The position numbers and the translations under genes were made by a program. A stretch of 64,000 nucleotides of DNA from Verrucomicrobiaceae bacterium. GTDB taxonomy: Bacteria > Verrucomicrobiota > Verrucomicrobiia > Verrucomicrobiales > Akkermansiaceae. The notes beneath the pieces were generated by a model. That model worked only from the letters and a program-made list of their open reading frames with translations. It was not told where the DNA came from and made no database searches. Location of the stretch: the NCBI GenBank assembly GCA_027491155.1, contig JAIXWR010000036.1, positions 62,001 through 126,000 on the forward strand, written 5' to 3'. Shown here in pieces: positions 20,826 to 28,695 of the stretch. Every line of letters begins with the position of its first letter. Within the stretch, counting starts at the first letter, position 1.

Positions 20826-21836
20826 TCAAGCGACCTCGATCCACTTCGTCCCCCGCTCGCCGTCGCGGATCTGGAACTTCACCGGCAGGAATTTCTCGAT
20901 CACCGCGATGTTCGTCGGGACGTGGGCGTCGGGCGACATGGTGAGGATTCGGCCTTGTCCGGCGAGGGCCATTGGCAGCAGGAGCTGGTCGGCGAGGCAA
21001 CGACCGACCGCCGCGCCGGAGCCGATGAAGTCGCTCATCGCCTTGGCGGCGCGCTGGCCGACGCGTTCGGCGGCGACGCCTTGCTCGCCGAAGCTGCTGG
21101 TGAGTTCGCGTTGCGCACCGAAGTCGGTTTCAACCAGGCAGCAAAGGCCGAGTCCGGGGCCGGGTTCGCAGTTCTCGATCGCGGCGTCGCGGGTGGGCAT
21201 GATCTCGACGGCGGCGTCGAGCATCCGGCCGGCGAGCGACAGGGGAAGTTGGCGGGTCAGGACGCGGATCCGCGTGGCCACGGCCTCGCTGCGCGTGACG
21301 AGGTCGAGCGGGAGGAGCTTGGGGCAGGGTTCGATCCGGCATTCCACGACGCCGCCGCCCGCCGGGGCGAAGCCGGCGGTGTGCAGGGTGATCGAGGCCT
21401 CGACGCCGGCCTTCTTCAAGGCGGGCAGGAAGACGCGGTCGAGGAAGTCGAAGGGCGGCGCGAGGGGATTGTGGGTGCCGCCTTCGAGTTTGAGGGTGGA
21501 AGGTCCGGCGGCTTGCCAGAGCGCGGGGAGCAGCGTCTGGAAAAGCAGGCCGGTGCTGCCCGCGGTGCCGATGGCGAACTGGTAGTCGCCCGCCTTCACC
21601 TTCCCGGCGCGGAAGACCAGCTCGGTCGAGCCGATTTCCGCGCCATCGGCCGTGCCGCCGGAGATTTCGCAGGCCGCCTTCACGCAGGTCAGGTGCTGGC
21701 GCATCAGACCCGGCCGCGAGCGCTTGCCGCGGATGGCCGTCATGCGGAAGGGCTGGCCGGTGATCATCGCCAGCGACAAGGCCGTGCGAAGCATCTGCCC
21801 GCCGCCGGAGGAGCCGTCGAGTTGGAGGGGTTTCAT
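20826..21836 (-). CDS. rtcA: RNA 3'-terminal phosphate cyclase RtcA
   Basis: 336 residues. ATP-dependent conversion of RNA 3'-phosphate ends to 2',3'-cyclic phosphates, feeding the RtcB ligase. Signature residues: 'DGSSGGGQMLRTALSLAMITGQPF' at the N-terminus, 'LEGGTHNPLAPPFDF', and the catalytic histidine in 'SPDAHVPTNIAVIEKFLP' (about H305). Length is normal. The ATG at 21836 has GAAAGG upstream. It follows rtcB on the same strand, separated by a 138-bp spacer full of inverted repeats. Part of the RNA-repair locus with rtcB, rsr, Y RNAs and rtcR. Confidence 0.95.
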   Translation of the reverse strand: MKPLQLDGSSGGGQMLRTALSLAMITGQPFRMTAIRGKRSRPGLMRQHLTCVKAACEISGGTADGAEIGSTELVFRAGKVKAGDYQFAIGTAGSTGLLFQTLLPALWQAAGPSTLKLEGGTHNPLAPPFDFLDRVFLPALKKAGVEASITLHTAGFAPAGGGVVECRIEPCPKLLPLDLVTRSEAVATRIRVLTRQLPLSLAGRMLDAAVEIMPTRDAAIENCEPGPGLGLCCLVETDFGAQRELTSSFGEQGVAAERVGQRAAKAMSDFIGSGAAVGRCLADQLLLPMALAGQGRILTMSPDAHVPTNIAVIEKFLPVKFQIRDGERGTKWIEVA

Positions 21837-21845
21837 GGGGTGAAA

Positions 21846-21972
21846 GGAGTGTCGCCTTGAAGGCGACATGGCGATGGACGCGCGGCATTCTGCCGCGAGG
21901 GAGTTGGAGGGCGGGGACGGGCGGCAGGATGCCGCCCGTCCGTTGTCATGTCGCTTCGGAAAGCGACACTCC
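21846..21972. repeat. BIME-like composite of four hairpins between rtcB and rtcA
   Basis: Outer elements: GGAGTGTCGCCTTGAAGGCG at 21847 and its inverted near-copy ending CGGAAAGCGACACTCC at 21972. Between them are CGCGGCATTCTGCCGCG and GGACGGGCGGCA-GGA-TGCCGCCCGTCC (21915-21941). The whole unit is an inverted pair of two-hairpin modules. It may stabilise mRNA or moderate rtcA expression relative to rtcB. Confidence 0.7.
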
Positions 21973-21974
21973 GA

Positions 21975-23456
21975 TCAATCATCCGCCGCGGCTTCGTCCT
22001 TGATCACGAAGCGCGCTTGCAGCTTCGCGACCGTTTCGGCGAGACCGGCGGACTCGACGCTGCGGAGGACTTCGGGGAAGTTCTTGTAGGCGTCGGGCGC
22101 TTCGTCGATGGGATATTTGCGGCAGTTGGAGAGGATGTCATGGGTGTCGAAGTCGGCATCGACCGACTTCTGGTCCAGAGTCCGCGCCGCGTGCTTGCGG
22201 CCCATCTGGCGGCCGGCGCCGTGGTTGACCGACCAGGCGGTGCGCTCGGCCCCGGCTTTGGCGACCATCACGACCGAGCCGTCGCGCGGGTTGCCGGGCA
22301 GCAGGATCGGGTGACCGGTCTCCGCGAAGGGAGTTCCGGCCAGCGAGAAATGCCCGCCGGGGATGGCCCGGGTCGCGCCTTTGCGGTGGACCCAGTTCTT
22401 TCGGCCGTCGAGGATCTCCTCCCGTGCGATGTTGTGCGAGATGAAGTAAACGAGCCTGCCCTTCGCGCCGGGCAGGATTTCCTGGAAGGCTTCCAGCACC
22501 AGGGCGTTGATCAGCAGGTGGTTCACCGTCGCGAAGTTCGAGCCGAGCGCCATGTCGTCGAGGTAGGCGTCCGCCTCGGCGGTTCCGAGCGGGGCATAGA
22601 CCAGCTTCTTGTCGCCGGAAGGGTAGGGCGTGCTCCATTTCTCGAACTTCCGTTCCAGGTCCTTGAACTGGGCCGTGGCGAGCAGGTTGCCGAAGCCGCG
22701 CGATCCGCAGTGGCTGAGGAAGGAGACGTGGCCGTCCTTCAAGCCGAAGCTGTCCGCGGTCGCCTGCATCGAGGGCCGATCGTTGACCCGGGTGATCTCG
22801 CACTCGCCGAAATGGTTGCCTCCGCCGTACGAGCCGAGCTGGCCGATCTTGTCGGCGAAGTTCTTCACGCGCTCTTCCTTCAGGATGAGTTCGAGCCGGC
22901 TACGAAGGGCATCGTAGGTCCCGTCGTGGCCGCGGTGGGTCGAGTCCTCGCAACGGGTCGCCCATTCCGGCGGGATGCCGAGCGCTTCGCAAACGTCCGC
23001 CACCGCGCCTTCGGTCACCACGCGGGTTCCGAGCGCCGTGTCCACGCGGCGGCCCTTCTTCACCGAGCGCTGGCCGCGGCCGGCGCCGGTCGGGGTGCGC
23101 TCGACGATGGCGTCGATCAAGGCGCGGCGCGTCCGCTTGTCGGCGATCGCGTCCTCGGGGATGTCGAGCTGGAGCAGCGACATCGAGCACTTGATGTCCA
23201 CCCCGACCGGGCCGGGATAGATGTGGGTCGGCGAGACCATCACGCAGCCGATCGGCGCGCCGTAACCGGCGTGGCCGTCGGGGTTGAGGATCACGTCGGT
23301 GACGCCCGGGGCCATCCGCGAGTTGATCGCCTGCTGGAGGCACATCTCGTCGAAATGGTCGCGGATCGCGTCGGTGCCGACCACGGTGATCGGTTTGCCG
23401 GTGTTGCCAGGGAGCGGGAGGAAGCCGAGGGCTTCGTCGGTCTTGTGGAGGGTCAT
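21975..23456 (-). CDS. rtcB: RNA-splicing ligase RtcB
   Basis: 493-residue GTP- and Mn-dependent ligase that joins 2',3'-cyclic phosphate or 3'-phosphate RNA ends to 5'-OH ends, repairing cleaved tRNA and rRNA. Metal and guanylylation residues are visible: 'GHAGYGAPIG', 'GVDIKCSMSLL' (C90), 'GGGNHFGE', 'SHCGSRGFG', 'ISHNIAR', and VNHGAGR with the GMP-accepting histidine at about 412. It is longer than the roughly 408-residue E. coli enzyme, with inserts around residues 100-160 and 270-330. It belongs to a cluster of minus-strand genes: 106-aa membrane protein, rtcB, rtcA, gph. No sigma-54 site is seen directly upstream. Confidence 0.96.
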   Translation of the reverse strand: MTLHKTDEALGFLPLPGNTGKPITVVGTDAIRDHFDEMCLQQAINSRMAPGVTDVILNPDGHAGYGAPIGCVMVSPTHIYPGPVGVDIKCSMSLLQLDIPEDAIADKRTRRALIDAIVERTPTGAGRGQRSVKKGRRVDTALGTRVVTEGAVADVCEALGIPPEWATRCEDSTHRGHDGTYDALRSRLELILKEERVKNFADKIGQLGSYGGGNHFGECEITRVNDRPSMQATADSFGLKDGHVSFLSHCGSRGFGNLLATAQFKDLERKFEKWSTPYPSGDKKLVYAPLGTAEADAYLDDMALGSNFATVNHLLINALVLEAFQEILPGAKGRLVYFISHNIAREEILDGRKNWVHRKGATRAIPGGHFSLAGTPFAETGHPILLPGNPRDGSVVMVAKAGAERTAWSVNHGAGRQMGRKHAARTLDQKSVDADFDTHDILSNCRKYPIDEAPDAYKNFPEVLRSVESAGLAETVAKLQARFVIKDEAAADD

Positions 23457-23460
23457 GGGA

Positions 23461-23833: not shown

Positions 23834-24058
23834 ATGAGCTTGTTGGATCGGATCACCATGAATCCAGAAGTCTGCGGCGGCCGGCCTTGTATCCGTGGAA
23901 TGCGGATTCGGGTGAAGGACGTGCTGGACTTGCTGGCGGCGAAGGTTCCGGAGGCGGAGATTCTGGAAGATTTTCCGTATCTGGAAGCGGAAGACATTCA
24001 GGCCTGCATCGAGTATGCGGCGGCCCAGGCGGACCATCCGGTTCTTTTGTCAGCGTGA
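23834..24058 (+). CDS. DUF433 antitoxin-like protein
   Basis: 74-residue DUF433 protein: 'RITMNPEVCGGRPCIRGMRIRVKDVLDLLAAKV' is the conserved core, followed by 'EAEILEDFPYLEAEDIQACIEYAA', a small winged-helix-like fold. DUF433 proteins are antitoxins usually paired with DUF5615 PIN-like toxins, as here: the toxin gene starts 20 bp downstream. The pair is the only plus-strand unit between the Y RNA array and rtcB, so it interrupts the RNA-repair locus. Confidence 0.88.
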   Translation: MSLLDRITMNPEVCGGRPCIRGMRIRVKDVLDLLAAKVPEAEILEDFPYLEAEDIQACIEYAAAQADHPVLLSA

Positions 24059-24078
24059 TTTGACACCGGGCCAGAGAA

Positions 24079-24417
24079 ATGACGGAGATCAAGTTTCTGA
24101 TTGATGCCCAGTTGCCACCTGCCCTGGCGAGGTTTCTGGCGGCGAAGAGCGGCGCGGCGGTTCATGTTGCGGATCTTGGTGCGAAGGACGCCACCGACTC
24201 GTGGATATGGGACAAGGCACTGGGAGAGGGGTGGGTGCTCGTGACGAAGGACGAGGATTTTCCAATGCGTGCTGCCCTGGCGAAAGCCGCTCCGGTGATT
24301 GTCTGGATTCGCTTCGGCAACACGTCGAGGACGGAGCTTTTGAGAAGAATCGAACCGATGGTGGACTGGTGGATCGAACGCATCGGCGAAGGAGAACGAT
24401 TGTTGGAGGTGCGGTGA
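24079..24417 (+). CDS. DUF5615 PIN-like toxin
   Basis: 112 residues. It has the short PIN-like fold of DUF5615: 'FLIDAQLPPALARFLA' (first acidic residue), 'GAKDATDSWIWDKA' and 'VLVTKDEDFPMRA' (second and third acidic residues), then 'VIVWIRFGNTS'. Predicted ribonuclease, neutralised by the DUF433 partner. Its stop lies only 14 bp from the end of the last Y RNA, tail to tail. A tRNA-targeting nuclease beside a tRNA-repair locus would be fitting, but the target is unknown. Confidence 0.85.
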   Translation: MTEIKFLIDAQLPPALARFLAAKSGAAVHVADLGAKDATDSWIWDKALGEGWVLVTKDEDFPMRAALAKAAPVIVWIRFGNTSRTELLRRIEPMVDWWIERIGEGERLLEVR

Positions 24418-24431
24418 GGTCGAAATGGGTT

Positions 24432-24556
24432 CATCGTGACAAAGAGGGCGAGGACGTTCCTTGAGCGCGTCTGATTCCGCCACGGGCACGGGGCCCGGCG
24501 GGGTTGGTTACCCGCACTGGTTTTCACCAACTGTAGTCTTCGCGGCATTCACGATG
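24432..24556 (-). ncRNA. Y RNA F: tRNA-Leu-like (class II) mimic
   Basis: Lower stem CATCGTGA/TCACGATG (8 bp), internal loop ATGCC/CCTCTTTG, upper stem GCGAAGAC/GTCCTCGC (one mismatch). Between the upper-stem strands, in RNA order: a long variable-arm-like hairpin TTGGT-GAAA-ACCAG, a T-arm-like GCGGG-loop-CCCGC, a closed acceptor CGGGC-CCCGT-GCCCG, then TGGCGGAATCAGACGCGC, which closely resembles the 5' part of bacterial tRNA-Leu. The T-loop (TAACCAA) and D-loop lack the usual TTC and GG. Evidence is covariation-like pairing plus similarity to siblings. Confidence 0.8.
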
Positions 24557-24565
24557 AAAAGGGGT

Positions 24566-24690
24566 CGGCGACAAGGGTTGGTGAAACGTTCCTGCTCTAC
24601 CACTGAGCTACCGGGCCAAAGTGGCCCGGGCCGGACTCGAACCGGCGACCTGGTCTTCCGTAAAGATGTAGTTTCACCGGCATTCGCCGG
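24566..24690 (-). ncRNA. Y RNA E: canonical permuted-tRNA mimic
   Basis: Lower stem CGGCGA/TCGCCG, internal loop ATGCC/AACCCTTG, upper stem GGTGAAAC/GTTTCACC (8 bp). Inside, in RNA order: AGGTC (variable loop), T-arm GCCGG-TTCGAGT-CCGGC (+ strand 24630-24646), seven-pair acceptor CCGGGCC-ACTTT-GGCCCGG (24611-24629), then TA (U8/A9), D-arm GCTC-AGTGGTA-GAGC (24592-24608). Every tRNA elbow residue (U8, G18, G19, U54, U55, C56, A58) is kept. The anticodon arm is replaced by the Ro-type stem. Confidence 0.9.
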
Positions 24691-24711
24691 TTGATGGGGT
24701 TGAAAAGGGGA

Positions 24712-24832
24712 TCCGCGACAAGGATTGGAAGGACGTTCGCCACTGCTCTACCGGACTGAGCTACCCGACGGGCGGGGTCGGATTCGAACCGACGACCTAT
24801 GGATTAAATGGAGTCCTTCCGGCATTCGCGGA
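24712..24832 (-). ncRNA. Y RNA D: permuted-tRNA mimic
   Basis: Lower stem TCCGCGA/TCGCGGA, internal loop ATGCC/AATCCTTG, upper stem GGAAGGAC/GTCCTTCC. Inside: ATTTAATCCATAGGTC, like the 3' side of an anticodon arm and variable loop; T-arm GTCGG-TTCGAAT-CCGAC (24777-24793); short closed acceptor CCCG-CCCGT-CGGG; TA; D-arm GCTC-AGTCCGGTA-GAGC (24745-24761). The D-loop and T-loop retain GG and TTC. Confidence 0.88.
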
Positions 24833-24838
24833 AGAGGG

Positions 24839-24935
24839 TGCTGACGAGGGGTTGCGGGACGTATTCTCGGGTCTTGCGACCCGTGCGGGAATCGAACTCG
24901 CTGGTTACCAGGTGTAGTCCCGCAGGCATTTAGCA
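24839..24935 (-). ncRNA. Y RNA C: T-arm and acceptor only, D-arm absent
   Basis: Lower stem TGCTAA/TCAGCA (one mismatch), internal loop ATGCCT/AACCCCTCG, upper stem GCGGGAC/GTCCCGC (24854-24860 with 24917-24923). Inside: T-arm GCGAG-TTCGATT-CCCGC (one A-C mismatch), acceptor CGGGTC-GCAA-GACCCG closed by a GNRA tetraloop, then only AGAATAC before the upper stem closes. The D-arm seen in B, D and E is missing. Confidence 0.82.
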
Positions 24936-24956
24936 TGAGTGCGGTTGGGGGTTTGA

Positions 24957-25081
24957 GGGAGCGCTGGCTTTAGCCGGCTTGGATGGTCGGGTGCCGTGGC
25001 CGGGGATGTTGATGGCTCGGTCGCCGGGGATGACCCGCGACCACCTTCCAACCGTCCAAGCCGGCTAAAGCCAGCGCTCCC
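24957..25081. repeat. Inverted repeat, GGAGCGCTGGCTTTAGCCGGC family
   Basis: Arms GGGAGCGCTGGCTTTAGCCG (24957-24976) and its reverse complement (25062-25081) extend to about 27 bp and flank a roughly 70-bp centre. Each arm also contains a GGCTTTAGCC palindrome. It splits the Y RNA array between RNAs B and C. A related copy lies at 54485-54546. Confidence 0.8.
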
Positions 25082-25096
25082 TTCGAGAGAGAAAGA

Positions 25097-25208
25097 TCCG
25101 CGACAACTAGGGGAAGATCCGGATAACTGCTCTACCACTGAGCTACCTTGCTTGCGCGAGGGCCGGACTCGAACCGGCGACCAATGTAATCTTCCGGGCA
25201 TTCGCGGA
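25097..25208 (-). ncRNA. Y RNA B: permuted-tRNA mimic
   Basis: Lower stem TCCGCGA/TCGCGGA, internal loop ATGCCC/CCTAGTTG, upper stem GGAAGAT/ATCTTCC (25112-25118 with 25189-25195). Inside: TTGGTC, T-arm GCCGG-TTCGAGT-CCGGC (25162-25178), acceptor CCTCGC-GCAA-GCAAGG (one mismatch, GNRA loop), TA, D-arm GCTC-AGTGGTA-GAGC. Conserved tRNA elbow bases are intact. Confidence 0.9.
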
Positions 25209-25217
25209 AAGGGGGTT

Positions 25218-25302
25218 GCCGGCACGGCGGCGAGGGATGACGAAGACGTTTTGTGCCATTCGTAGTGGAGTTGTAGTCTTCGTCGGCATCCGCCGTGCCG
25301 GC
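25218..25302 (-). ncRNA. Y RNA A: minimal Y RNA without tRNA-like domain
   Basis: Begins 7 bp after the rsr stop. Perfect 12-bp lower stem GCCGGCACGGCG/CGCCGTGCCGGC, internal loop GATGCC/ATCCCTCG, perfect upper stem GACGAAGAC/GTCTTCGTC (25276-25284 with 25239-25247), and a 28-nt apical loop with no T- or D-arm. The upper stem resembles, from memory, the GNCGAAG/CUUCGNC helix described for YrlA-type RNAs. The strong lower stem could also end the rsr coding message. Confidence 0.78.
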
Positions 25303-25309
25303 AGATTCG

Positions 25310-26884
25310 TCACGCGAGTTTCATGAGTTGGTTGAGGGGTTGGAGTTCGATCTCGCGGATCCAGTGGTCCGATCCGTCGGCCCCGGCCGCGAAGGCGGCG
25401 ATGAGGTCGAAGACGGTGTCGCTGAAGCCGCCGATGTTGAGGATGTCCTTGCGGTCCGGAGCCTGCGTCGTGGTGTTGGGGGTGAGGTCGATGCAGACGA
25501 GCCGGGCCTTCGGGTTGCGGTTCTTGAGCTTTTCCCATTCGGCCATCACCGCGGTTCCGCGGCCGGCCTTGGGATCGGCCCAGGATTCGTTGTCGGAAAC
25601 GAAGACCACCAGGTCGGGGGCCGCCTTTTCCGAGTTGAGCAAGCGCAGCGGGGCCGAGCAGTTCGTTCCACCGCCGCCGACCTTGGCGAGCTTGGTCGCG
25701 TTGGTCATCACGGTGTCCCGCGGGTTGAGTGCGACGTCCACGACCTTGACCTCGAAGGGCAGGACGCGGGCGTCCCGGTTCTTCCGCAGGAAGGCGGCGG
25801 CGACCAGCGCGGCGACATCGATGCAGCGGACCGCCGAGTTGGCACCCTTGCGGTAGCCGGTGACGGGCGATTGCATCGAGCCGGACACGTCCGGGCAGAC
25901 CACGACCTTGCCTTGGATCTCCGGCACGTTCGAGAGCGCGACTTCCATCGCGTCCTGGAGCGCTTCACGGATCACCCCGGGCACCTCCTTGCCGGCGTTC
26001 ATGTAGGCAACGAGGAGCTGGTAGGGGAAGACCCGGGCGCGCCGGATTTTCTCGGGATCGGCCAGCCGGGCGGCCAGCTTTTCCGCCATGCCGCCGAACT
26101 TGAAGACCCCGTGACGGGCGAAGGTGTTGAGGTTCATCCGCGTGGTTTGCCACGAGGCGGAACCGGCGATCGCCGCCCACTCCCGGTCACCGAGATCGAG
26201 CGCGGTGAGCATCTGAAACGGCACGTCGGGGACCTCGCCTTGCTTGGAAAGCTTCCACGCTTCGAAGGCGCGGAGGGTTTCCGGCAGGGCGGCGATGTCG
26301 AAGGGCTTGCCGACCAGCCAGGCGTAGAAGGCCTGCCGGGTGGCATCGGCCGGACGCGGGTGGACCATCTTCACGACATCCGCCAGCGAGGGATCGTTGC
26401 CGATCGCCGAGTTGAGCAGTTGCCGTTCGTCGGCCCGCTCGAGCCACTGGCGGACGAGCCGCTTCGGCGCCGAGCCCAGCGACTTCCGCCCGGTGACGCC
26501 GGAGCGCAGGATCTGGACGAAGTTCCGGAGCATCTTCCCGTTGTCGATGACCTGCGGAAAGATCTCGATCAGCCGGTCGAGGTCGCGGGTGGCGAGCACC
26601 GCGCAGAGCAAGGCCGGCATGTCCTTCATGTGGCCCTTGCGCCGGGCGTAGAGGGCGGTCTGAGCGAGGAAATCGACATCCACCCGCTTGGCCAGGTCGA
26701 GCACGCGGTCGAGCTGCGTTTCGGCGGAGGCGTAGAAGGTCCGGGTCAGGCAGCCGGTGGCGGCCAGCCGGGCGAGCGTCGCCTTGGGCGAAAGCTCGTA
26801 GGCCGGGGCTCCCGCGTCGTTGCGGACGGTCGCCGCGGGAAGCAGGGCGCCGCGGATCGTGTGGAACAGGTTCTTGTTGGCCAT
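25310..26884 (-). CDS. rsr: Ro60 ortholog Rsr (TROVE domain plus vWA domain)
   Basis: 524 residues. The TROVE HEAT-repeat ring (about 1-320) binds Y RNA outside and single-stranded RNA 3' ends in the cavity: 'YASAETQLDRVLDLAKRVDVDFLAQTALYARRKGHMKDMPALLCAVLA' and 'RVFPYQLLVAYMN' are typical. The C-terminal vWA domain (about 325-524) keeps the MIDAS D332-V-S-G-S. Bacterial Ro proteins work with Y RNAs in RNA quality control, for instance by tethering polynucleotide phosphorylase. The ATG at 26884 lies about 40 nt below a sigma-54 -24/-12 promoter. Six Y RNAs follow on the same strand; rtcR is divergent. Function by homology is firm. Confidence 0.95.
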   Translation of the reverse strand: MANKNLFHTIRGALLPAATVRNDAGAPAYELSPKATLARLAATGCLTRTFYASAETQLDRVLDLAKRVDVDFLAQTALYARRKGHMKDMPALLCAVLATRDLDRLIEIFPQVIDNGKMLRNFVQILRSGVTGRKSLGSAPKRLVRQWLERADERQLLNSAIGNDPSLADVVKMVHPRPADATRQAFYAWLVGKPFDIAALPETLRAFEAWKLSKQGEVPDVPFQMLTALDLGDREWAAIAGSASWQTTRMNLNTFARHGVFKFGGMAEKLAARLADPEKIRRARVFPYQLLVAYMNAGKEVPGVIREALQDAMEVALSNVPEIQGKVVVCPDVSGSMQSPVTGYRKGANSAVRCIDVAALVAAAFLRKNRDARVLPFEVKVVDVALNPRDTVMTNATKLAKVGGGGTNCSAPLRLLNSEKAAPDLVVFVSDNESWADPKAGRGTAVMAEWEKLKNRNPKARLVCIDLTPNTTTQAPDRKDILNIGGFSDTVFDLIAAFAAGADGSDHWIREIELQPLNQLMKLA

Positions 26885-26923: not shown

Positions 26924-26939
26924 GGCATGGGGCGTGCCA
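26924..26939 (-). promoter_or_regulatory. Sigma-54 (-24/-12) promoter of rsr
   Basis: Minus strand reads TGGCACG-CCCC-ATGCC: a perfect -24 element and a -12 GC with the required GG-N10-GC spacing. It lies about 40 nt before the rsr ATG, in the intergenic region shared with rtcR, which encodes a sigma-54 activator. Confidence 0.85.
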
Positions 26940-27102: not shown

Positions 27103-28695
27103 GTGAAGCGGGTGGCAATCGGACTTCTGGGGAGCAAGCTGGACAGCGGGTTCGACGCCCGGCGCTGGGACGGCTGGCGGCCGAGTGTGTCGCTGTTCCA
27201 GCACGAAGAGCTGCTGTTCGACCGCTTCGAGCTGCTGGCGGAGCGGCAGTTCGATGGCTTGCAGGAGCGGGTGGCGGAGGATGTCCGGCTGGTTTCGCCG
27301 GAGACGACGGTGGTGAAGCACTTCGTCGATTTCGGCCGCGATCCCTGGGATCTGGCGACGGTGTACGGGGCGCTGCACGACTGGGCGCGGGGCTACGACT
27401 TCGATCCGGAGAAGGAGGAATACTGGATTCACATCACGACGGGCACGCACATCGCACAGATCTCGCTGTTCCTGCTGGTGGAGGCGGGCTTTCTGCCGGG
27501 GAAGCTGGTGCAGACCTCGCCGCGGACGTCGGGGCGGGTGACGGATCCGAAAGGGCGCTATGCGGTGATCGACCTGGATCTCTCGAAGTACGACGCGCTT
27601 AGTACGCGCTTCGCCAAGGATGTCGCGGAGACCACGGACTTTTTGAAGAGCGGGATCGCGACCCGCAGTGCCGGCTTCAACCGGCTGATCGACCGGATCG
27701 AGCAGGTGGCGCTGCGCTCCCAGGCGCCGGTGCTGCTGACCGGGCCGACCGGGGCGGGGAAGTCGCACCTGGCGCGGCGGATCTTCGAACTCAGGAAGCA
27801 GCGCGGCGGGATGCGGGGAAGCTTCGTCGAGATCAACTGCGCCACGCTGACCGGCGACACCGCGGCATCGGCCTTGTTCGGCCATGTCCGCGGGTCCTTC
27901 ACCGGGGCGCAAAAGGATCGGCCGGGATTGCTGAGGGAGGCGGACGGCGGGCTGTTGTTCCTCGATGAAATCGGCGAGCTGGGGCTGGACGAGCAGGCGA
28001 GGCTGCTGCGGGCGTTGGAGGATAAGACCTTCCTGCCGGTGGGGGCGGACAAGCCGGTGACGAGCGACTTCCAGCTCATCGCGGGGACCAACCGCGACTT
28101 GCGCGAGGCGGTGGCGAGCGGGCGCTTTCGCGAGGACCTGTTAGCGCGGATTCACCTCTGGACGTTCTCGTTGCCGTCGCTCGGGCAGCGGAGGGAGGAC
28201 ATTGCTCCGAACCTCGATTTCGAGCTGGAGCGCTTCAGCCGGACGCATGGAAGGCAGGCGAGCTTCAACAAGGAGGCGCGGCAGGCATTTCTCAAGTTCG
28301 CGGAAGCGCCGGACACGCCGTGGAGCGGGAACTTCCGCGATCTCAACGCCGCGGTCACCCGGATGGCGACGCTGGCGCCGCGCGGGCGGATCCGGATCGA
28401 GGAGGTGGAGGAAGAGATCGGGCGGTTGCGGGAAAGCTGGCAGCGGCCGGGAAGTACGGCGACTGTCGTAGAAAGCGCGGATCTTGGCGGGCTGGTGGAG
28501 GAAGAGCTGGATCCGTTCGACCGGGTGCAGCTCGCGCACGTGGTGGCGGTGTGCCGGAGGTCTCGGAGCTTGTCGGAGGCCGGGCGGGAGTTGTTTGCGG
28601 TGTCGCGGACGAAGCGGGCGGTGACCAATGATGCGGATCGATTGAAGAAGTACTTGGCGAAGTTCGAGTTGGATTTCGAGAGGTGCCGGGGGTGA
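27103..28695 (+). CDS. rtcR: Sigma-54-dependent RNA-repair regulator RtcR
   Basis: 530 residues, GTG start. N-terminal CARF-type sensor domain (about 1-180; 'IGLLGSKLD', 'HITTGTHIAQISLFLLVEAG') that in RtcR perceives RNA end signals. Central AAA+ domain: Walker A GPTGAGKS (214-221), the sigma-54-contacting GSFTGA loop (264-269, a conservative variant of GAFTGA), Walker B GGLLFLDEIGEL (282-293) and the arginine finger region. The C-terminal segment (about 470-530) is the DNA-binding part. It is divergent from rsr with 218 bp between, as expected for an activator of the rsr-Y RNA and rtcBA genes. Repeat copy 28703-28849 follows. Confidence 0.95.
   Translation: MKRVAIGLLGSKLDSGFDARRWDGWRPSVSLFQHEELLFDRFELLAERQFDGLQERVAEDVRLVSPETTVVKHFVDFGRDPWDLATVYGALHDWARGYDFDPEKEEYWIHITTGTHIAQISLFLLVEAGFLPGKLVQTSPRTSGRVTDPKGRYAVIDLDLSKYDALSTRFAKDVAETTDFLKSGIATRSAGFNRLIDRIEQVALRSQAPVLLTGPTGAGKSHLARRIFELRKQRGGMRGSFVEINCATLTGDTAASALFGHVRGSFTGAQKDRPGLLREADGGLLFLDEIGELGLDEQARLLRALEDKTFLPVGADKPVTSDFQLIAGTNRDLREAVASGRFREDLLARIHLWTFSLPSLGQRREDIAPNLDFELERFSRTHGRQASFNKEARQAFLKFAEAPDTPWSGNFRDLNAAVTRMATLAPRGRIRIEEVEEEIGRLRESWQRPGSTATVVESADLGGLVEEELDPFDRVQLAHVVAVCRRSRSLSEAGRELFAVSRTKRAVTNDADRLKKYLAKFELDFERCRG

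What the first reader, a model, noticed from the sequence alone, without database searches (positions are those of the whole stretch)
24432..25302. Tandem array of six Y RNAs behind a Ro60 (rsr) gene
Six consecutive minus-strand RNAs share one architecture: a lower stem, an internal loop with a conserved ATGCC on the 5' side and CC(C/T)T(T/C)G-like on the 3' side, and a 7-9 bp upper stem, with a variable insert. Stem sequences differ between copies but pairing is kept, which is natural covariation. Spacing between units is only 6-21 nt except where a repeat element intervenes. Bacterial Y RNAs near Ro60 are known, usually as one or two genes; a set of six with different inserts suggests a diversified panel of Ro60-bound adaptor RNAs.
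Basis: partly seen in the sequence, partly recalled or inferred. Interest (0 to 1): 0.9.

Follow-up and report, generated by a model that had tools for sequence, protein, structure and literature searches.

The report
Six-gene array of tRNA-mimic Y RNAs
Behind the Ro60-like gene of a bacterial RNA-repair operon lie six small RNAs that share one predicted protein-binding stem but carry different heads, several shaped like rearranged tRNAs, and such panels turn out to be common behind related genes in other bacteria.

Summary
Six minus-strand Y RNAs lie between rsr (25310-26884) and rtcB. Rfam YrlA matches five (three above its gathering score); the sixth is seen by shape and by orthologs. Ortholog alignments show strong compensatory changes. 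The locus is a complete RNA-repair operon: divergent rtcR, sigma54-like site, rsr, array, rtcB, rtcA. 'Six is unusual' is wrong for this rsr clade: 75 of 103 distinct loci with any unit have three or more, up to seven (70 of 104 at a stricter score).

The heads are the new part. Besides the known permuted-tRNA head (T arm, acceptor, D arm), arrays hold short heads, heads with T arm and acceptor only, and heads carrying the D arm of a particular tRNA: Leu (window unit 6), initiator Met, or Pro. A second topology, mostly in Burkholderiales, is a whole tRNA opened in the D loop with another hairpin in place of the anticodon loop, including a class II tRNA-Leu. A Salmonella-labelled contig carries an unannotated third unit after yrlB and yrlA.

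Best reading: an RtcR-controlled panel of Rsr-bound adaptors whose heads imitate different tRNAs; what the heads bind is inferred.

The parts
25217..25303 (-). Y RNA unit 1 (short head, no tRNA features; 14-bp lower stem starting 6 nt after the rsr stop codon)
   Evidence: descriptor 32.9; fold z -7.5; blastn orthologs in L065, L035, L036
25094..25208 (-). Y RNA unit 2 (classical permuted-tRNA head: T arm, acceptor hairpin, D arm)
   Evidence: Rfam YrlA 74.2 bits; covariation, upper stem weak
24945..25086 (.). dispersed palindromic repeat inserted between units 2 and 3 (not part of the RNAs)
   Evidence: 52 matching pieces in the own genome, self-match included
24835..24936 (-). Y RNA unit 3 (T-arm-like stem-loop and acceptor-like hairpin, no D arm)
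   Evidence: Rfam YrlA 35.1 bits, below gathering; descriptor 30.0; five orthologs; best own-tRNA match reached by 2 of 200 shuffles
24709..24832 (-). Y RNA unit 4 (classical permuted-tRNA head)
   Evidence: Rfam YrlA 76.8 bits; 13 of 27 pairs with two-sided changes
24562..24690 (-). Y RNA unit 5 (classical permuted-tRNA head, closest to own tRNA-Phe)
   Evidence: Rfam YrlA 85.5 bits; 18 of 30 pairs with two-sided changes; tRNA comparison
24430..24555 (-). Y RNA unit 6 (tRNA-Leu-like head: GNRA-capped variable-arm-like hairpin, T-arm-like stem, acceptor hairpin, Leu D arm TGGCGGAAT..AGACGC)
   Evidence: Rfam YrlA 27.9 bits, below gathering; Leu D-arm signature found in 5 of 5 own tRNA-Leu and 0 of 40 others; own tRNA-Leu match reached by 0 of 200 shuffles; covariation
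25310..26884 (-). rsr, divergent Ro60 ortholog (vWA_Ro60 above cut-off, TROVE just below; D. radiodurans Rsr 2NVO E 3e-26)
26925..26939 (-). sigma54-like promoter TGGCAC-N6-TGC, 41 nt upstream of the rsr start codon
   Evidence: only match in 64 kb, 0.57 expected; TGGCA(C/T)-N6-TGC within 260 nt upstream of rsr in 67 of 104 loci against 10 of 104 on the other strand; another pattern, which the window site does not meet, in 46 of 104
27103..28695 (+). rtcR, CARF/sigma54 activator, divergent
   Evidence: NCBIfam RNA_repair_RtcR above cut-off; divergent rtcR in 95 of 104 loci
21975..23457 (-). rtcB RNA ligase (start inferred)
   Evidence: Pfam RtcB E 3e-98
20826..21869 (-). rtcA RNA 3'-phosphate cyclase
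   Evidence: Pfam RTC; NCBIfam above cut-off
23834..24417 (+). DUF433 and DUF5615 (PIN-like) gene pair between array and rtcB, opposite strand
   Evidence: Pfam

Best explanation
The six RNAs are bacterial Y RNAs co-transcribed with rsr from an RtcR/sigma54-controlled RNA-repair operon. Each binds Rsr through the shared lower stem and AUGCC internal loop, and presents a different head. Five of the six heads contain tRNA-like arms; in units 2, 4, 5 and 6 these are arranged so that the Rsr-binding stem replaces the anticodon arm. They imitate different tRNAs, unit 6 imitating tRNA-Leu. The likely function is a panel of Rsr-tethered tRNA-shaped handles, made when tRNAs are being broken, that bring to Rsr (or keep occupied) proteins recognising tRNA bodies: PNPase, the known partner of YrlA, and possibly tRNA nucleases, modification enzymes or the repair enzymes. 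Shown here: structure, covariation, operon context, recurrence, and sequence resemblance to particular tRNAs. Inferred: co-transcription, Rsr binding, induction, and what the heads bind.
For: Rfam YrlA; covariation in four ortholog sets; complete operon with divergent rtcR and sigma54-like site; similar layout in relatives, with rtcR in 95, rtcB in 89 and rtcA in 64 of 104 loci, many cut short by the fetched flank. Best own-tRNA scores of the heads: unit 2, 60.0; unit 4, 62.4; unit 5, 70.2; unit 6 (Leu), 41.8 with the next amino acid at 30.0; none reached by 200 shuffles (maxima 34.1, 34.8, 35.5, 31.1), although one of 10 earlier shuffles of unit 6 reached 36.7. The Leu match repeats in relatives (L035 46.0, L041 68.6, L064 42.3). 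D-arm signatures for Leu, initiator Met and Pro each hit one amino acid only in 45 own tRNAs. Whole-tRNA heads opened in the D loop fold and covary in other genomes. Rsr binding to Yrl RNAs, Rsr/YrlA binding to PNPase, and RtcR activation by broken tRNA in other bacteria are published (passages of PMC4726728; PMC9879122; PMC7790460).
Against: Unit 1 resembles no own tRNA, and unit 3's best match is reached by 2 of 200 shuffles. Window unit 6 lacks the UUC of the T loop and the GG of the D loop, so its elbow contact is probably gone. The acceptor ends are capped by loops. The 'standard' D arm is shared by 20 of 45 own tRNAs, so most heads cannot be assigned to one tRNA. The Rsr is divergent: Pfam TROVE 21.4 bits against a cut-off of 23. 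An rsr match is found in only 42 of 189 genomes of the order, so the system is dispensable. No expression or binding data exist.
Confidence: 0.6

Rival explanations
1. Decoy panel: the heads are bait for enzymes that attack tRNA; by lacking an anticodon loop they are bound but cannot be cut, sparing real tRNAs.
For: In 31 D-loop-opened heads (28 distinct segments) a loose test for a 7-nt anticodon loop passes in 2 (L085, L237), where by eye a longer hairpin closes the loop further, against 86 of 86 real tRNAs (an earlier run with worse segments passed 3 of 31). Hughes et al. suggest YrlA as competitive inhibitor of the nuclease and detected no YrlA fragments (PMC7790460, passages). PIN-type genes sit beside the array here and in L141.
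Against: Many anticodon nucleases are thought to need the anticodon arm itself (recalled), which these heads lack. No nuclease binding is known.
Confidence: 0.25
2. Neutral or dosage array: repeated Y RNA duplication raises Rsr occupancy; the heads are just stable folds captured from tRNAs, drifting freely.
For: Array size varies 1-7 among loci; unit 6 and three relatives lack the elbow bases.
Against: In the aligned ortholog sets the T arms covary and T- and D-arm positions are largely invariant; unit order is the same in the window, L064 and, with an extra short unit, L035; Leu, initiator-Met and Pro signatures recur.
Confidence: 0.15
3. The tRNA-like heads are substrates or gauges of the repair enzymes RtcB/RtcA, or are processed by tRNA maturation enzymes, rather than adaptors.
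For: rtcB was found downstream in 89 of 104 loci; YrlA is modified by tRNA enzymes (PMC8394870, passages).
Against: Loci with units but no rtcB, rtcA or rtcR match in the fetched flanks exist, for example L121 and L142 with 6 kb downstream. Short heads would not serve; acceptor ends are capped by loops.
Confidence: 0.1
4. They are decayed tRNA genes or an artefact of tRNA-like composition.
For: Rfam tRNA scores 27 bits at 24622-24770, just below its cut-off of 29.
Against: ARAGORN calls no tRNA in the window; parts are in permuted order inside covarying Y stems.
Confidence: 0.02

Closest known systems
Salmonella YrlA (RF02553; [quoted passage not shown]
   Same: Same order rsr, Y RNAs, rtcB, rtcA; same stem/AUGC loop/stem core; same permuted T-acceptor-D head in units 2, 4, 5; short head first as in YrlB.
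   Different: Six units instead of the two named; tRNA-Leu-like head; a T-acceptor-only head; an opposite-strand PIN-like gene pair inside the operon.
Deinococcus radiodurans Rsr/Y RNA/PNPase complex (RYPER)
   Same: Ro60 ortholog plus Y RNA; its Rsr is the best solved relative (2NVO, E 3e-26).
   Different: Here in an RtcR/RtcB/RtcA operon with a multi-unit array; PNPase partnership untested. The Deinococcus locus was not examined.
Circularly permuted and viral tRNA mimics (as compared in PMC11472068)
   Same: tRNA fold made from reordered segments.
   Different: D arms of particular tRNAs, and a second opening point (D loop) with another hairpin at the anticodon position; that paper's Y RNA example is the one structure 6CU1 (passages).

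Membership tests
Bacterial Y RNA, YrlA type (RF02553) | Rfam covariance model at or above 69 bits | tested here: met
   Units 2, 4, 5 (74.2, 76.8, 85.5 bits). Not met by units 3 (35.1), 6 (27.9) and 1 (no YrlA match), which I file only as Y RNAs in general.
Bacterial Y RNA (general) | lower stem, AUGC internal loop, upper stem with covariation | tested here: met
   All six by descriptor; covariation tested for units 2, 4, 5, 6, not for 1 and 3
Bacterial Y RNA (general) | encoded beside an Rsr/Ro60 gene | tested here: met
Bacterial Y RNA (general) | discrete RNA bound by Rsr in cells | not testable with these tools
   no expression or binding data
Ro60/Rsr protein | Pfam vWA_Ro60 at or above cut-off and alignment along solved Rsr | tested here: met
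   69.2 bits against 27.7; residues 16-501 align to 2NVO, E 3.1e-26
Ro60/Rsr protein | Pfam TROVE and NCBIfam Rsr equivalog at or above cut-off | tested here: not met
   TROVE 21.4 against 23; NF041674 101 against 900 bits: a divergent Rsr, not the NCBI equivalog
YrlB (RF02565) | Rfam model at or above 97 bits | tested here: not met
   unit 1: 18.3 bits, E 1.9
RtcR-controlled RNA-repair operon | divergent rtcR, sigma54 promoter, rsr, rtcB, rtcA | tested here: met
   the promoter is a sequence match only
tRNA-Leu mimic (unit 6) | Leu D-arm signature and class II variable arm | tested here: inconclusive
   D-arm signature met; a variable-arm-like hairpin is seen in sequence and in L064, L035, L041, L070 but its pairs align poorly (25-67% paired); T-loop UUC and D-loop GG absent

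The most novel reading that the evidence does not exclude
RNA-repair operons encode an ordered panel of Rsr-bound RNAs that imitate particular tRNAs (Leu, initiator Met, Pro and a general class I form) in two different circular permutations, one replacing the anticodon arm and one entered through the D loop with another hairpin at the anticodon position. The imitated tRNA can change in one slot between related species. The panel is a tRNA-specific part of the response to tRNA damage, and the enterobacterial operon holds a third, unrecognised member.
Probability: 0.45. Interest if true: 0.85.

Novelty: new variant of a known kind. Interest (0 to 1): 0.74.

Why it matters
What bacterial Y RNAs do besides tether PNPase is open, and the named pair YrlA/YrlB gives little to compare. 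Panels of up to seven natural variants with the same core and different heads are ready-made test material. Heads copying tRNA-Leu or initiator tRNA predict which tRNAs, and which tRNA-binding proteins, matter when the operon is switched on by broken tRNA. At its gathering score the Rfam YrlA model misses three of the six units in the window.

Tried and rejected
ARAGORN found no tRNA in the window. Window unit 1 as a YrlB: rejected (18.3 bits). Phage-type Rsr loci: Myxococcus phage Mx1 and Mycobacterium phage ScoobyDoobyDoo gave no descriptor hit of 24 or more; R1 gave one match in the latter, E 0.011, opposite strand, and none in the former. So the array was not seen in these two of 376 phage records with an Rsr match. 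The enterobacterial third unit: looked for in 369 genomes of the class of G205 (0 hits, no positive control), plasmids (no match) and E. coli genomes (no match; the one E. coli locus viewed has rtcR-rtcB-rtcA without rsr). It rests on two phage-labelled, unverified contigs identical over 351 bases, probably host DNA, so the species is uncertain. Alignment of L117 unit 5 to whole tRNAs picked SeC, not Leu; the Leu assignment there rests on D arm and variable arm. The Leu pattern finds only one of the five tRNA-Leu of that second genome. A padloc scan matched only RtcR meaningfully. Structure prediction of Rsr was not run.

Literature: Chen 2014, Sim and Wolin 2018 and Burroughs and Aravind 2016 are not held, so whether arrays or other heads are shown in them is unknown; from recall of the Chen 2014 abstract, at least one Y RNA per species has a tRNA-like domain.

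Full report
WHAT IS THERE. Its closest named relatives by Rsr are Verrucomicrobiota, among them Luteolibacter and Haloferula. The minus strand carries, in order, rsr (25310-26884), six Y RNA units (25303 down to 24430), a small ORF, rtcB and rtcA. rtcR is divergent on the plus strand. A TGGCAC-N6-TGC site, the form of a sigma54 promoter (motif recalled), lies 41 nt before rsr and is the only exact match in 64 kb (0.57 expected). TGGCA(C/T)-N6-TGC lies within 260 nt upstream of rsr in 67 of 104 distinct loci, against 10 of 104 for the other strand of the same segments; an earlier pattern, which the window's site does not meet, was in 46 of 104. This is the layout of the Salmonella operon rsr-yrlBA-rtcBA, which RtcR activates when tRNA is broken (passages of PMC7790460 and PMC9879122).

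THE SIX UNITS. Rfam YrlA passes its threshold for units 2, 4 and 5. Units 3 and 6 match below threshold with E 1.4e-5 and 0.0016, and unit 1 has no usable match. My descriptor, written from the six units, scores them 29.9-34.8 against 22.6 for the next site in the window. The covariation tests use orthologs collected by blastn with no pairing rule and aligned by MAFFT. Pairs changed on both sides: 18 of 30 for u5 (24 of the 42 sequences on hand; I left out 18, the non-Verrucomicrobia and two more), 13 of 27 for u4 (13 of 19), 8 of 22 for u2 (all 14), 7 of 34 for u6 (6 sequences: the script assigned none, so four were taken from the list, two of them partial matches, and L041 was added by position). 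Shuffles reached these counts in 0, 0, 1 and 3 of 500, and slid pairings lose most of it. Weak points are the upper stem of u2 (60.8% paired as aligned) and the variable-arm-like hairpin of u6 (25-67%).

HOW COMMON IS IT. Rsr relatives gave 110 loci (L034-L143), 104 distinct by the last 600 nt of rsr, the window's own copy included. 103 of the 104 have at least one unit scoring 22 or more within 1.8 kb behind rsr; the exception ends 243 nt after rsr. Sizes: 1 in 2 loci, 2 in 26, 3 in 23, 4 in 31, 5 in 12, 6 in 6, 7 in 3. At 25 or more, 70 of 104 have three or more and two have none. Controls at 22 (25): upstream 5 (0) in 0.62 Mb, opposite strand 5 (1) in 1.07 Mb, against 364 (342) in 0.18 Mb behind rsr. 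A covariance model also found units that the descriptor missed (for example L079:7959-8070). The loci were the best 80 of 330 relatives plus the 30 best of 44 matches in 42 of 189 order genomes, so they represent this RtcR-linked clade and not all Ro60 proteins, and most genomes of the order had no match. A model (R1) built from five Burkholderiales units gave 231 matches at E up to 1 in the 70 sources that I searched (window and 69 loci), in Verrucomicrobia, Proteobacteria and Acidobacteria alike, though none in L138. By eye three lie outside arrays, all with E above 0.04. Median gap between units is 22 nt (261 gaps).

THE HEADS. Compared with the genome's own 45 tRNAs, read in circular order, units 2, 4 and 5 match far above 200 shuffles but are close to several tRNAs. 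Unit 6 matches Leu (41.8; next amino acid 30.0; 0 of 200 shuffles, maximum 31.1, though one of 10 earlier shuffles gave 36.7). Unit 3 is reached by 2 of 200 shuffles and unit 1 by 151 of 200. The Leu D-arm signature is in 5 of 5 own tRNA-Leu and 0 of 40 others; the initiator signature is in 1 of 45, Pro in 1 of 45, the standard one in 20 of 45. In the second genome's 41 tRNAs the Leu pattern hits only one of its five tRNA-Leu and nothing else. Among 364 units of 103 loci the signatures are: standard opened at the anticodon arm 142, standard opened in the D loop 18, initiator 7, Leu opened at the anticodon arm 6 (window unit 6 included), Leu opened in the D loop 5 (two of identical sequence), Pro opened in the D loop 2. 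19 of the 103 loci carry more than one kind. The order short, T+D, T, T+D, T+D, Leu is the same in the window and L064, and in L035 with an extra short unit. Before removing duplicates, a short head comes first in 60 of 109 loci.

A SECOND PERMUTATION. In the known YrlA form the Rsr stem takes the place of the anticodon arm. In the D-loop-opened heads the insert starts with the 3' half of the D arm and ends with its 5' half, so the whole tRNA body is present, with an arm at the anticodon position. By record titles most are Burkholderiales, others alphaproteobacteria, an acidobacterium and a verrucomicrobium. In Pseudacidovorax (L117) the unconstrained fold gives both Y stems, a D stem, an anticodon-position stem with GAAA loop, an 11-bp variable arm, T arm and a short acceptor hairpin (z -4.3). 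Eleven Leu- and Pro-type units covary on that structure (17 of 45 pairs changed on both sides; 0 of 500 shuffles). A loose test for a canonical anticodon loop passes in 2 of 31 such heads (28 distinct segments), each time inside a longer hairpin as judged by eye, and in 86 of 86 real tRNAs (a first run with faulty segments passed 3 of 31). In L109 and L116 the same slot with similar flanks holds a Pro-type head instead of Leu. R1 finds this group in 9 of 200 genomes of that family at E up to 1e-12, the genome of L117 included.

A KNOWN SYSTEM AS YARDSTICK. Two phage-labelled unverified contigs, probably host DNA, carry the end of rsr, YrlB (105.5 bits), YrlA (70.9 bits) and, before rtcB, a third unit at L240:925-1033. 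It scores 30.6 by descriptor, 39.1 bits (E 1.4e-10) by R1, and 31.7 bits by YrlA, below threshold. It folds with both Y stems (z -2.6). Papers read in passages name only yrlB and yrlA, and 'yrlC' occurred in none of the six papers listed. No true Salmonella chromosome was searched.

MECHANISM. Shown: an operon of the kind that responds to broken tRNA encodes several RNAs with one conserved core and diverse, mostly tRNA-shaped heads that keep their structure. Inferred: Rsr binds each core, as it does for Yrl RNAs elsewhere (PMC4726728), and the heads engage proteins that recognise tRNA bodies. I favour handles over decoys because short and T-arm-only heads coexist with full mimics, but the loss of anticodon loops keeps the decoy reading alive.

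NOVELTY. Bacterial Y RNAs, their permuted tRNA head and the operon are known. I saw no report of isotype-specific heads, of D-loop-opened heads, or of large arrays in the listings and passages of searches of an open-licence library. The main papers of the field are not held there, so absence from print is not established.

AFTER CHECKING. The check replaced 'always encoded with rtcB' by the counts, added the stricter and wider controls and the missed TROVE cut-off. These changes go both ways and I left the odds as they were.

Noticed in passing
window 23834-24417 (+): DUF433/DUF5615 (PIN-like) gene pair, resembling a toxin-antitoxin module, sits antisense between the array and rtcB; the RtcR regulon of Salmonella includes the dinJ-yafQ toxin-antitoxin pair (PMC9879122 passages), and L141 has a PIN-domain ORF in the same gap.
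   Followed up: partly
L124 and L139, between the array and rtcB: An ORF of the Tpt1/KptA RNA 2'-phosphotransferase family lies in the operon (L124 by Pfam, E 5e-42; L139 by its similar sequence), another RNA-end enzyme.
   Followed up: partly
window 24945-25086: Palindromic repeat with many partial copies in the genome (REP-like), inserted inside the array between units 2 and 3.
   Followed up: partly
L240:925-1033 (OR851267.1) and the same stretch in OR845705.1: Unannotated third Y RNA-like unit between yrlA and rtcB on Salmonella- and Escherichia-phage-labelled contigs.
   Followed up: partly
L100 and L137, between the array and rtcB: A 264-aa ORF, of which the first 150 residues have no Pfam match (L100); by eye, similar proteins lie in the same gap of L092 and L103.
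   Followed up: no
window 24428-24560 (-) and relatives in alignment A3: In the Leu-like head, the T-loop UUC and the D-loop GG are absent together in four of six sequences and present together in two, as if the elbow contact came and went as a unit.
   Followed up: no
genomes G001, G002, G004, G013, G017: 5 of 17 other genus members have no YrlA match at E 0.001, so the array is patchily distributed within the genus.
   Followed up: no
L121 and L142: Rsr relatives with Y RNA units but no rtcR, rtcB or rtcA match in the fetched flanks (6 kb downstream, 2.4-3.1 kb upstream).
   Followed up: no
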